Shown: positions 16,831 through 19,399 of the stretch, piece by piece
Layout: each line of letters opens with the position of its first letter
Position numbering within the stretch: position 1 is the stretch's first letter
Assembly (NCBI GenBank): GCA_947381435.1
Contig: CANCVE010000001.1
Coordinates: forward strand, 62,001-126,000
Length of the DNA: 64,000 bases
Direction: 5' to 3'
Source of the DNA: Chitinophagaceae bacterium
GTDB taxonomy: Bacteria > Bacteroidota > Bacteroidia > Chitinophagales > Chitinophagaceae
Translations under genes and position numbers: made by a program
The notes under the pieces: model-generated
Told to the model about the DNA's origin: nothing
Seen by the model: the letters and a program-made list of their open reading frames with translations, nothing else
Databases searched by the model: none

Positions 16831-17070
16831 CTAGTGGTTAGTTATTAGTTGTTAGATAAGAGTGAATGCACCTTTCTTTTGTTGGAATAGGAAAATTTTT
16901 ACTAACTAATCATTCAAATCTTTATTTATATCTAAAAAAAGCAAGCATCCCGTATCGGCTCTAGTATAAAACATTTTTTGTCGGATATTCTTGTATAAAC
17001 TACTTTCTGGTAAAGAAGAATTTGAACGCTCCTACTTTTTTTCTTAAATAATTTACGCTGATTCGTGACT

Positions 17071-17294
17071 AAGTCGTTTAGTTCAGAAAGTTTTCACTTT
17101 AGTTCAGAACTAAGTCGATTATTTCAGAAAGTTTTCACTTTAGTTCAGAACTAAGTCGATTATTTCAGAAAGTTTTCACTTTAGTTCAGAACTAAGTCCA
17201 TTATTTCAGAAAGTTTTCACTTTAGTTCAGAACTAAGTCGATTATTTCTGAAAGTTTTCACTTTAGTTCAGAACTAAGTCGATTAGTTCTGAAA
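17071..17294. repeat. Tandem array, 41-bp unit x 5.5
   Basis: Units start at 17071, 17112, 17153, 17194, 17235 and 17276 (partial). Each holds two dyads, AAAGTTTTCACTTT and AGTTCAGAACT, roughly 20 bp apart. The rest of the 16831-17647 spacer shows no gene I can support. Confidence 0.93.
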
Positions 17295-17647
17295 CAATCT
17301 AATCGTGCAAGAAATAAATAAAGAAACACGTTAAAATGGAGGATGTACAATAGCTAGAGAGGGATAAATAGTGTATGTATGTTATGAAAGAAGGAATGAA
17401 ATTATTTAGTAAATTTTTTTATAGAAGTTAAGTGAGACAATAATTTGCAACAACCATTTAGTACGGTAAGTAGCAGTTGGATAACCAAAAGAAAAGCGAA
17501 TGGGTGACATTTAAAACCCGTGAATTGAATAGATTTCTTTAAGACGGTGAATATAGCGATGGAATGAGTGGAAGGTGGTGGAAACTTCTGAGATGTAACT
17601 AAATTTGAACTGGATTCTTATATTTACAACGGAAAAAACAATTAAAT

Positions 17648-18520
17648 ATGGCAATCAAATCAATTCTAGTAGTTTTCATTATATCTACTATTCTTATTTC
17701 TTGTCATCAGAAGGAGAAAGTTGAAGAGGGCTTGGACAATTATTCCAAAATGGCATTTATCTCTTCACATAAAATTGCTAAAAATGCTATAAAAGATATT
17801 ATGGCTAATATTGAAAGTAAAAAGCATAATCCAGAAACGAGAGATACCGCTTACATCTATAAACCCAAAGCAGATTCAATTGTAAATCTGTGTGACAAGT
17901 TGACTGATTATCTAGAAAAACTTGTGGATAGGGTAAACAACAATGAAAAACTAGAAGACAAGGATAGTTTATTTGAGAAACTAAGAACATTTGAAGCAAC
18001 ATTGGTAAAAATTGACACTAGGAATGAGGTCTTTGGGAATAGTATATTAGACATAGATACTTTAATAGGGTTCAAGAATATGAATAGAAATGAATTCAAT
18101 AACCAACTTTTAAAAGTTGCATCTAAAAATCAAACTTTAGCTTTTATAAATTCTATAGAGCAAGATGTTTTAAATGCTGAAGTTAAATTGATAGATAAAA
18201 TTAATAAAGACTGTGGTTATAGAGATCTCATTTTTGATAAATATTATGCTCTCATCACTCAAAATTCAGAGCAACTTAAGCCTAATAATATTTTAGAAAT
18301 AACAGCTGGCATTGGTAGATTTGAATATCATCCAAATGCAAAGTTTACGATTGGAAACAAAGAAATACCAATTAACGATAGCACCAATGGTGTAGCCATT
18401 TATAAAATGAAAGTTTCTGATAAAAAAGGAAGACATACAATTCGTACAAAAATTTCTTGGAAAAAACCCAATGGAGAACCAATTGAGTTGGAAAAAGAAA
18501 TTGTTTACTACGTAGAATAA
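17648..18520 (+). CDS. GldM-like orphan lipoprotein
   Basis: 290-aa lipoprotein with signal MAIKSILVVFIISTILISC (lipid Cys19). The body resembles the first two periplasmic domains of GldM, the T9SS/gliding motor protein. A helical region has YIYKPKADSIVNLCDKLTDY and FINSIEQDVLNAEVKLIDKI, then FDKYYALITQNSEQLKPNN leads into LEITAGIGRFEY and an Ig-like domain ending in EKEIVYYVE. True GldM is about 520 aa, has an N-terminal transmembrane helix that enters the GldL motor, and two further Ig-like domains. Here the helix is replaced by a lipid anchor and the last two domains are missing. No gldKLN genes are adjacent. A motor role is therefore unlikely; partner binding is possible. Confidence 0.68.
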   Translation: MAIKSILVVFIISTILISCHQKEKVEEGLDNYSKMAFISSHKIAKNAIKDIMANIESKKHNPETRDTAYIYKPKADSIVNLCDKLTDYLEKLVDRVNNNEKLEDKDSLFEKLRTFEATLVKIDTRNEVFGNSILDIDTLIGFKNMNRNEFNNQLLKVASKNQTLAFINSIEQDVLNAEVKLIDKINKDCGYRDLIFDKYYALITQNSEQLKPNNILEITAGIGRFEYHPNAKFTIGNKEIPINDSTNGVAIYKMKVSDKKGRHTIRTKISWKKPNGEPIELEKEIVYYVE

Positions 18521-18534
18521 GGAACGTGCACGGT

Positions 18535-18557
18535 GAACAACCTTCAAAAGGTTGTTC
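18535..18557 (+). terminator. Hairpin after the GldM-like gene
   Basis: GAACAACC (18535-18542) pairs with GGTTGTTC (18550-18557) around TTCAAAA, 15 nt after the stop codon. There is no T-run. A related hairpin with the same loop and the same TAGCG tail occurs at 48285-48318. Confidence 0.5.
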
Positions 18558-18648
18558 ATCATAGCGAGAAACTACTACTTGTTTTTAGGTTATTAATTGA
18601 ATAAAATTCAAAGTTTAACCTAAGGGTATAACTTCGTCGAAAGTTTTA

Positions 18649-19101
18649 ATGAAGCATCCTAAGTATAGTTATCGGTCTGAAGATTTATTTCTAGTCTATG
18701 AGTTTATTAGCGAAGGATCGAAAGGATTCATTAAAAAGATGGTAGTTTATACGGAGACGTCAACAGAAAACGTATACAATCTTGGCTTTGGAGATTATGA
18801 AGAAATCACAAATGGAATAAACGATCTAATAGTAACAAACAATGGGGATAGTCTGAAGGTTTTAGCCACTGTTGCTTCTACAGTTTATGCCTTTACAGAG
18901 AAATATCCAAATGCCTGGATTCTTGCAACTGGAAGTACTAATGTAAGAACGAGGCTGTATAGAATGGGTATTACTAATAACTTAGCAGAAATCAAGATAG
19001 ATTTCATAGTTTTGGGGTACAACAAAGAAGAACAGTGGGAAGAATTTATAATAGGAGAAGATTATGAAGCATTTTTATTAGCAAAAAAACAAAATCAATG
19101 A
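18649..19101 (+). CDS. DUF6934-like protein, first gene of an overlapping pair
   Basis: 150-aa soluble protein. The segments VYNLGFGDYEE, VTNNGDSLKVLATVASTVYA, FTEKYPNAWILATGST and RTRLYRMGI match from memory a Bacteroidota family annotated DUF6934, of unknown function. There is no signal peptide or membrane segment. Its stop codon overlaps the ATG of a 57-aa ORF by 4 nt (ATGA at 19098-19101), so the two are translationally coupled. Scattered small two-gene cassettes of this shape are often toxin-antitoxin or defence-related, but nothing in the sequence proves such a role. It is flanked by a lipoprotein and housekeeping tsaE. Confidence 0.72.
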   Translation: MKHPKYSYRSEDLFLVYEFISEGSKGFIKKMVVYTETSTENVYNLGFGDYEEITNGINDLIVTNNGDSLKVLATVASTVYAFTEKYPNAWILATGSTNVRTRLYRMGITNNLAEIKIDFIVLGYNKEEQWEEFIIGEDYEAFLLAKKQNQ

Positions 19102-19271
19102 AGTATATGACAGTAGAACAAACCATAGAGAAATTAAACAAATCAAAAGTGCCTATTATTGTCCTTGACAAGCGTTTGGAAAAATTTAGAGGGAAAGACT
19201 TATTTCCTGAAAAGATGAAAAGGGCAAATGAGATTTTAGCAAAGACAGGATTGCCTAGCCTGAAGAAGTAA
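19098..19271 (+). CDS. 57-aa protein coupled to the DUF6934-like gene
   Basis: A small ORF starting within the stop of the preceding gene (ATGA overlap) and ending in TAA at 19269-19271. The product begins MKYMTVEQTIEKLNKSKVPI and continues IVLDKRLEKFRGKDLFPEKM to GLPSLKK. It is highly charged with about 14 Lys, has a predicted N-terminal helix, a short hydrophobic strand (VPIIVLD) and a C-terminal helix, and shows no signal. The overlap, sensible codon use and lack of low complexity make it a genuine gene. It could be the partner (antitoxin-, chaperone- or adaptor-like) of the larger protein, which is inference. I do not recognise a named domain. Confidence 0.72.
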   Translation: MKYMTVEQTIEKLNKSKVPIIVLDKRLEKFRGKDLFPEKMKRANEILAKTGLPSLKK

Positions 19272-19399
19272 GGTTATTGGATTTTAGAATAGGCAAAAAA
19301 TCAAAGTCAACCTTATCAATCATTTCTTTCATTCCAATCATTTAGTCAGTATTTCAAATCCTCCCTTCCTTCAACAATTCCATTTCTTATCTTCGCCAA

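What the first reader, a model, noticed from the sequence alone, without database searches (positions are those of the whole stretch)
18649..19271. Overlapping two-gene cassette: DUF6934-like protein plus 57-aa partner
The 150-aa gene and a 57-aa Lys-rich ORF overlap by ATGA, so they are coupled in translation. The cassette sits in an accessory stretch between a lipoprotein and tsaE. Small coupled pairs of this form are often toxin-antitoxin, anti-phage or regulator-effector units, and I know of no function for this one. The small ORF is short enough to be missed by standard annotation.
Basis: partly seen in the sequence, partly recalled or inferred. Interest (0 to 1): 0.62.

Follow-up and report, generated by a model that had tools for sequence, protein, structure and literature searches.

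The report
New toxin-antitoxin-like gene pair
Two small neighbouring genes, one from an uncharacterised family and one tiny gene that the family libraries do not recognise, occur and evolve together in many Bacteroidota; they look like a harmful protein and its bound partner, but this has not been tested in cells.

Summary
Window 18649-19101 encodes a 150-aa DUF6934 protein (Pfam E=2.7e-55) and 19098-19271 a 57-aa ORF overlapping it by ATGA. The small ORF is a real gene: of 154 intact DUF6934 copies with room downstream, 131 have a profile-detected relative there and 20 another 40-110 aa ORF; a similar ORF follows 56 of 502 control genes, 78 of 88 DUF6934 genes, in a stricter test. Partners co-diverge copy by copy within genomes (r=0.80), and AlphaFold docks the partner of a relative on its DUF6934. 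The cassette is patchy, multicopy, non-syntenic and found on resistance plasmids. Partner genes also occur alone (27 of 40 chosen loci); intact DUF6934 rarely does. Best reading: a reverse-order toxin-antitoxin-like module, DUF6934 the effector, the small protein its neutralising partner. The DUF6934 model resembles GNAT acetyltransferases (Z up to 6.7), but no sequence search I ran links them and the usual acetyl-CoA loop motif is missing, so the chemistry is unknown. No experiment shows toxicity. No held paper names DUF6934.

The parts
18649..19101 (+). DUF6934 gene, 150 aa: proposed effector (toxin-like), compact alpha/beta fold
   Evidence: PF22028 E=2.7e-55; AF2 pLDDT 94.1, pTM 0.86
19098..19271 (+). 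57-aa Lys-rich partner gene: proposed neutralising partner (antitoxin-like)
   Evidence: conserved next to DUF6934; co-divergence; pN/pS median 0.27 among relatives; partner of relative L037 docked in a model
19098..19101 (+). ATGA overlap of stop and start codons
   Evidence: exactly 4-nt overlap in 5 of 74 pairs
19107..19109 (+). alternative in-frame ATG of the partner gene
   Evidence: sequence; relative L044 begins at the matching residue
18838..18852 (+). codons 64-68 (N-N-G-D-S) just before and at the start of the first long helix; N65 nearly invariant, D67 invariant in 75 sequences
   Evidence: secondary structure
18928..18969 (+). codons 94-107 (TGSTNVRTRLYRMG): end of a strand and second helix; G95 and Y104 invariant, T97, R100, R102, L103 handled as nearly so except T97 (see A4)
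   Evidence: G95, Y104 invariant and R100, R102, L103 nearly invariant in 75; T97 nearly invariant in 45; secondary structure
19206..19247 (+). partner codons 37-50, matching the C-terminal helix predicted to pack on DUF6934; K39 invariant in 59 sequences
   Evidence: couplings
18927..18927 (.). point inside DUF6934 from which the closest relative (G580) is 96% identical through tsaE; the part of the gene before it has no DNA match there
19383..19387 (.). start of DNA homology around tsaE in G666 (19383) and G695, G744, G432, G765 (19387); in five other genus members with a match it starts further in

Best explanation
A mobile two-gene toxin-antitoxin-like module in reverse order. DUF6934 is a small globular effector with conserved polar residues (N65, D67, T74, R100, R102, Y104) that would harm the cell if free. 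The 50-60 aa partner, encoded directly after it, binds it through a short strand and a C-terminal helix (LFPEK..KAN..L...GLP) and keeps it inactive. Shown by computation: conserved pairing, purifying selection, copy-specific co-evolution, accessory and plasmid distribution, solo partners. Predicted: the complex. Inferred: toxicity of DUF6934, neutralisation by the partner, the target. My guess for the chemistry is group transfer by a reduced GNAT-like fold, at low confidence.
For: Pairing: of 154 intact copies with room, 131 have a profile-detected partner and 20 another 40-110 aa ORF; the other 3 (L255, L258, L014) have longer-start overlapping ORFs, that of L258 lacking the usual end. Genome level, same family: DUF6934 in 116 of 394, partner in 104 of 394; comparing the two lists by eye, 93 genomes have both, about 31 expected by chance. 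Co-divergence: 122 pairs r=0.619, 1000 shuffles at most 0.094; 92 within-genome paralog pairs r=0.803; swapping partners within genomes gives at most 0.353 against 0.642. Couplings: 16 inter-protein pairs above z 4, against a mean of 0.8 and a maximum of 3 in 30 shuffles. Complex: pTM 0.86 for the read-through chain of L037, partner residues about 19-48 at mean pLDDT 92-95. Solo partners in 27 of 40 chosen loci; a DUF6934 C-terminal half and partner-like sequence in one ORF (L020). Spread: up to 9 matches per genome; 19 of 395 genomes in a phylum draw; a Riemerella and a Myroides plasmid carry the same two proteins among resistance genes.
Against: No growth data. Gene order is opposite to the usual type II order (PMC9431474, passages seen). 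No DNA-binding domain was recognised in the partner, so autoregulation is unsupported. Of 14 broken DUF6934 copies 12 keep a partner match (my reading; partial in L271), but the genes differ in length about 450:165, and by hand estimate that alone could give such a ratio, so gene decay does not tell which gene is toxic. Solo partners could mean a function of their own. L250 and L253 are broken copies without a partner; L033 and L243 are intact copies whose downstream ORFs do not look like the partner. In the phylum-wide draws the partner profile found 9 of 390 genomes against 19 of 395 for DUF6934; outside the close families the neighbouring small ORFs are too divergent for the profile, or not homologous.
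Confidence: 0.55

Rival explanations
1. Obligate two-subunit enzyme or complex without toxicity: the small protein is a structural or activating subunit of DUF6934, which does accessory metabolism or modification.
For: Tight pairing, co-evolution and a predicted complex fit any obligate heteromer.
Against: Partner genes occur without DUF6934 in 27 of 40 chosen loci and in tandem triples; patchy presence; no neighbour family found in more than 7 of 38 loci, so no wider pathway is visible.
Confidence: 0.2
2. Anti-phage (abortive infection) unit: the pair is silent until phage infection frees DUF6934.
For: A few nearest flanking genes match PADLOC models (Cas6, PtuA, PtuB, mads_2); patchy, multicopy distribution.
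Against: Each listed PADLOC model matches at most 2 of 71 flanking proteins (25 of 57 families shown) and no control set was scanned; the pair itself has no significant PADLOC match.
Confidence: 0.15
3. The small protein is the main actor (for example an RNA- or protein-binding factor) and DUF6934 is its modifier or regulator.
For: Partner-like genes also follow a YhcG/DUF1016 nuclease gene by 8-9 nt (L163, L167), and partner-like sequence ends a 240-aa protein (L183); the aligned part has positive net charge in 118 of 122.
Against: Intact DUF6934 is rarely without it, which fits dependence of DUF6934 on the partner rather than the reverse; charge alone shows no binding.
Confidence: 0.1

Closest known systems
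GNAT-RHH type II toxin-antitoxin systems (AtaT, KacT, TacT, GmvT)
   Same: Two closely spaced genes; effector model resembling the GNAT fold: AtaT 6gtr, KacT 5zgn and GmvT 9ilr each Z 6.0, among many other GNATs of equal score.
   Different: Effector gene first; partner has no recognised RHH domain; no GNAT sequence match seen (where 25 of 34 families were shown); consensus lacks the R/Q-x-x-G-x-G/A loop (motif recalled). Z under 8 may mean only a common arrangement.
DUF6169 (PF19666) with an upstream small ORF, Bacteroidota
   Same: Comparable size and order of motifs, small Lys-rich ORF close by in several loci; profile comparison E=0.00093.
   Different: Small ORF lies upstream and has another motif; hhalign probability only 22.5%, so kinship is a lead.
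RNase E DNase I-like subdomain
   Same: Foldseek rank 5, TM 0.56 by target length; Z 5.9.
   Different: No sequence match; a competing fold reading that I cannot exclude.

Membership tests
Pfam PF22028 DUF6934 | Score above the curated cut-off of 27 bits | tested here: met
   186.8 bits over 2-147
Type II toxin-antitoxin system | Two adjacent, closely spaced or overlapping genes | tested here: met
Type II toxin-antitoxin system | Antitoxin gene usually upstream of toxin gene | tested here: not met
   small gene is downstream in the window and in the profile-matched pairs; usual order from PMC9431474 passages; exceptions such as HigBA are recalled, so the order does not define all families
Type II toxin-antitoxin system | Toxin inhibits growth when alone | not testable with these tools
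   needs an expression experiment
Type II toxin-antitoxin system | Antitoxin binds and neutralises the toxin | tested here: inconclusive
   binding predicted only, co-evolution; neutralisation not testable
Type II toxin-antitoxin system | Antitoxin or complex represses the operon through a DNA-binding domain | tested here: inconclusive
   no convincing DNA-binding family in the 57-aa protein or the 59 alignment members; one PHROG HTH match at E 0.01 over 33 residues is weak
GNAT-RHH toxin-antitoxin | RHH-domain antitoxin | tested here: not met
   no RHH family among the nine listed at E up to 1 for 59 partners; a sequence scan can miss a divergent domain
GNAT acetyltransferase superfamily | GNAT fold | tested here: inconclusive
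   Foldseek best E 0.014, TM 0.46; VIA Z up to 6.7 over 115 residues, rmsd 5.4, mostly GNATs; a cedratvirus protein named N-acetyltransferase domain-containing at E 3.5e-4, TM 0.48; RNase E domain nearly as good
GNAT acetyltransferase superfamily | R/Q-x-x-G-x-G/A acetyl-CoA loop before helix 3 | tested here: not met
   consensus there is SNNxDxxKVLATVA; motif definition recalled
GNAT acetyltransferase superfamily | Tyrosine in the LYxxxGF helix | tested here: inconclusive
   Y104 is invariant in RLYRMGI but equivalence was not checked on coordinates; motif recalled

The most novel reading that the evidence does not exclude
DUF6934, DUF6169 and their tiny Lys-rich partners form a Bacteroidota superfamily of toxin-antitoxin-like modules whose effector is a stripped-down GNAT-like fold that lost the acetyl-CoA loop and does another reaction, while the partner is an exchangeable module: kept alone, in tandem arrays, beside YhcG nucleases or fused to other proteins, as a standing stock of antidotes against incoming copies.
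Probability: 0.2. Interest if true: 0.78.

Novelty: new variant of a known kind. Interest (0 to 1): 0.55.

Why it matters
It gives a partner, a likely role and a clear experiment to a Pfam family of unknown function found in 116 of 394 sampled genomes of its host family, and shows a small protein family without a Pfam model that two plasmid records misname. If toxic, it would be a new Bacteroidota toxin family, carried also on plasmids with several resistance genes, relevant to plasmid persistence.

Tried and rejected
Housekeeping role: no support; the sequence searches show only DUF6934 with weight. SIR2 (E 0.026), MCR-12 (E 0.016) and PHROG HTH (E 0.01) matches were taken as chance. Phage origin: no tblastn match in 50,697 phage records; among predicted viral structures similar folds occur, often inside large uncharacterised phage proteins (20 matches at E<=0.001), not followed further. 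A defence-island reading was looked at once on 71 nearest flanking proteins, without a control. Gene-decay asymmetry as proof of which gene is toxic was given up after weighing gene lengths by hand. PDB sequence search with the partner gave chance-level matches only. No solved structure reached Z 8 with either model. A regular-expression attempt on DUF6169 loci found nothing and was redone by coordinates. In one search, 24 of 62 loci dropped out through de-duplication, leaving 38. A protein scan of genome contigs by short patterns gave only two loci.

Rows dropped before counts: ORFs under 100 aa; two copies at contig edges; from its 18 'broken' copies I set aside L017, L018, L019 and L027 as divergent rather than broken. 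The 40 solo-test loci (L155-L194) were picked from the partner matches listed that had no listed DUF6934 neighbour; not all such matches were fetched, L194 did have a listed (broken) neighbour, L155 one about 1.1 kb away, and L165, counted as solo, has only 246 nt upstream before its contig ends. In one search only pairs with at least 60% amino-acid identity were used, which lowers pN/pS. One search used 30 shuffles, which do not control for shared ancestry; the within-genome swap does in part.

Full report
Observation. Window 18649-19101 (+) encodes 150 aa and 19098-19271 (+) 57 aa, sharing ATGA. The first is DUF6934 (PF22028, E=2.7e-55). The second has no match of weight in four libraries. 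The genome shows one copy of each (a second partner-like match at E 0.41 I take as chance). The cassette has 33.5% GC in a stretch (16831-19399) of 31.0%; the window has 37.2%.

Is the small gene real? In loci fetched by DUF6934 searches, 74 of 93 unique DUF6934 ORFs of at least 100 aa had a profile-matching ORF of 48-87 aa directly downstream. Four of the 19 misses (L066, L084, L098, L124) have it in an ORF with a longer start. With more loci, of 154 intact copies with room, 131 had a profile match and 20 another ORF of 40-110 aa starting -60..+90 nt from the end; among the latter L033 and L243 do not look like partners. For a 40-75 aa ORF at -10..+60 nt the rate after other genes was 56 of 502, against 78 of 88 for DUF6934; these limits differ. 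Codon comparison of 171 partner pairs gave pN/pS below 1 in all 171, median 0.27, against 0.29 for DUF6934 in 126 pairs (pairs were preselected at 60% identity, which lowers the ratio). The exact 4-nt overlap occurs in 5 of 74.

Distribution. PF22028 is matched in 116 of 394 genomes of the same family, 19 of 395 of a phylum-wide draw and 10 of 13 of the genus, some of these fragments, with up to 9 matches in a genome. The partner profile is matched in 104 of 394 and in 9 of 390 of a phylum draw, fewer than DUF6934 there: farther relatives have small downstream ORFs that the profile misses. Comparing the listed handles by eye, 11 partner-positive genomes lack a DUF6934 match and 93 have both. 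All 13 genus genomes have tsaE, but only the window genome and G580 have a DUF6934 match on the tsaE contig. In DNA comparison the other members align from 19383 or further in; L301 gave no DNA match, and L302 has only 68 nt upstream of tsaE. In G580 DNA identity (96%) begins at 18927 inside DUF6934: the front of that gene has no match and another gene lies there, whereas the 57-aa gene is intact and differs at 3 of 171 bases. Plasmids: four records carry a DUF6934 match; three of them match the window's 57-aa protein next to it, and the fourth (Spirosoma) has a 162-nt coding gene 19 nt after it. WP_041321170.1 and WP_141113035.1 sit together in a Riemerella and a Myroides plasmid among resistance genes; in a third plasmid the DUF6934 match is in two pieces.

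Co-evolution. Distances of 122 pairs correlate at 0.619 (1000 shuffles, maximum 0.094). For 92 within-genome paralog pairs r is 0.803; swapping partners within genomes drops the 74-pair subset from 0.642 to a mean of 0.138, maximum 0.353. Direct-coupling scores give 16 inter-protein pairs above z 4 against a mean of 0.8 in 30 shuffles; strong ones link the partner's C-terminal helix (I46, R42, window numbering) with DUF6934 strands (L92, T94, Y124), and K29 with N64 and S68 (whose partner numbers are 7 lower). With about 120 sequences these are leads.

Structure. The window DUF6934 model has mean pLDDT 94.1, pTM 0.86. Foldseek against PDB has no match at E<=0.001; the top is the GNAT EctA at 0.014. 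VIA-align rows are mostly GNATs, Z up to 6.7, with AtaT, KacT and GmvT at 6.0, and RNase E at 5.9; the tool warns that Z under 8 may reflect a common arrangement. Among predicted viral proteins 20 match at E<=0.001, most unnamed or uncharacterised, one a cedratvirus N-acetyltransferase domain-containing protein (E 3.5e-4, TM 0.48). By sequence, none of the 25 shown of 34 Pfam families for 75 members is a GNAT family, and a PDB profile search at E up to 10 listed none. The read-through chain of L037 gives pTM 0.86 with partner residues about 19-48 at pLDDT 92-95. This is one chain with a six-residue linker and no interface score, so it supports but does not prove binding.

Solo partners. Of 40 loci taken from partner matches, nearly all without a listed DUF6934 neighbour, 13 show a DUF6934 trace and 27 do not, one of these (L165) cut by a contig end. 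They include triple tandem copies (L166, L188), a copy 8-9 nt after YhcG/DUF1016 nuclease genes (L163, L167) and a partner-like end of a larger protein (L183). Of 14 broken DUF6934 copies 12 keep a partner match, which gene length alone could explain. Orphan antitoxins and anti-addiction are discussed in PMC7354431 (passages seen); a search of PMC2701414 for such terms gave one passing mention.

Interpretation. The pattern fits a reverse-order toxin-antitoxin-like module. Shown are pairing, selection, co-evolution and spread; binding is predicted; toxicity, neutralisation and chemistry are inferred. Literature: DUF6934 and DUF6169 occur in no held paper; three broader searches were seen as listings with abstract beginnings only, and those listings describe no such pair. 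The held library lacks most subscription journals.

Noticed in passing
L275, L278, L280, L281, L284, L285, L286, L288: DUF6169 genes with a 51-91 aa Lys-rich ORF ending -20 to 115 nt before the ORF start listed, several with a motif like LEDKKxI...GxxL..LK....FVKP; possibly a sister module.
   Followed up: partly
L163 and L167: DUF6934-partner-like small gene 8-9 nt after a YhcG PDDEXK nuclease gene.
   Followed up: partly
L166:3002-3533, L188:2449-2987: Three tandem partner-like genes without DUF6934, downstream of what looks like an agmatine deiminase gene (label recalled).
   Followed up: no
L183:2471-3193: Partner-like sequence at the end of a 240-aa protein with no Pfam family over its cut-off.
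   Followed up: partly
L020 (G253:C6): C-terminal half of DUF6934 and partner-like sequence in one ORF; the front half lies in another ORF.
   Followed up: partly
L289:6481-6642, L290:6481-6642: Plasmid records name the partner 'DUF4197 domain-containing'; in my scan one of 59 partners hit DUF4197 at only E 0.0097.
   Followed up: partly
L086, L093, L100: Related genes 26-117 nt upstream of DUF6934 that look like tyrosine recombinases (label recalled, not scanned with Pfam).
   Followed up: no
L033:1249-1512: A partner-like ORF on the strand opposite to DUF6934, tail to tail (E 0.0024).
   Followed up: no
BFVD models such as A0A4P2TJL2, A0A2L0V094: DUF6934-like fold inside larger uncharacterised phage proteins, TM about 0.6 by query.
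   Followed up: no
17648-18520: 290-aa protein with a lipoprotein-like start and a sub-threshold match to the GldM second domain (E 0.0081).
   Followed up: no
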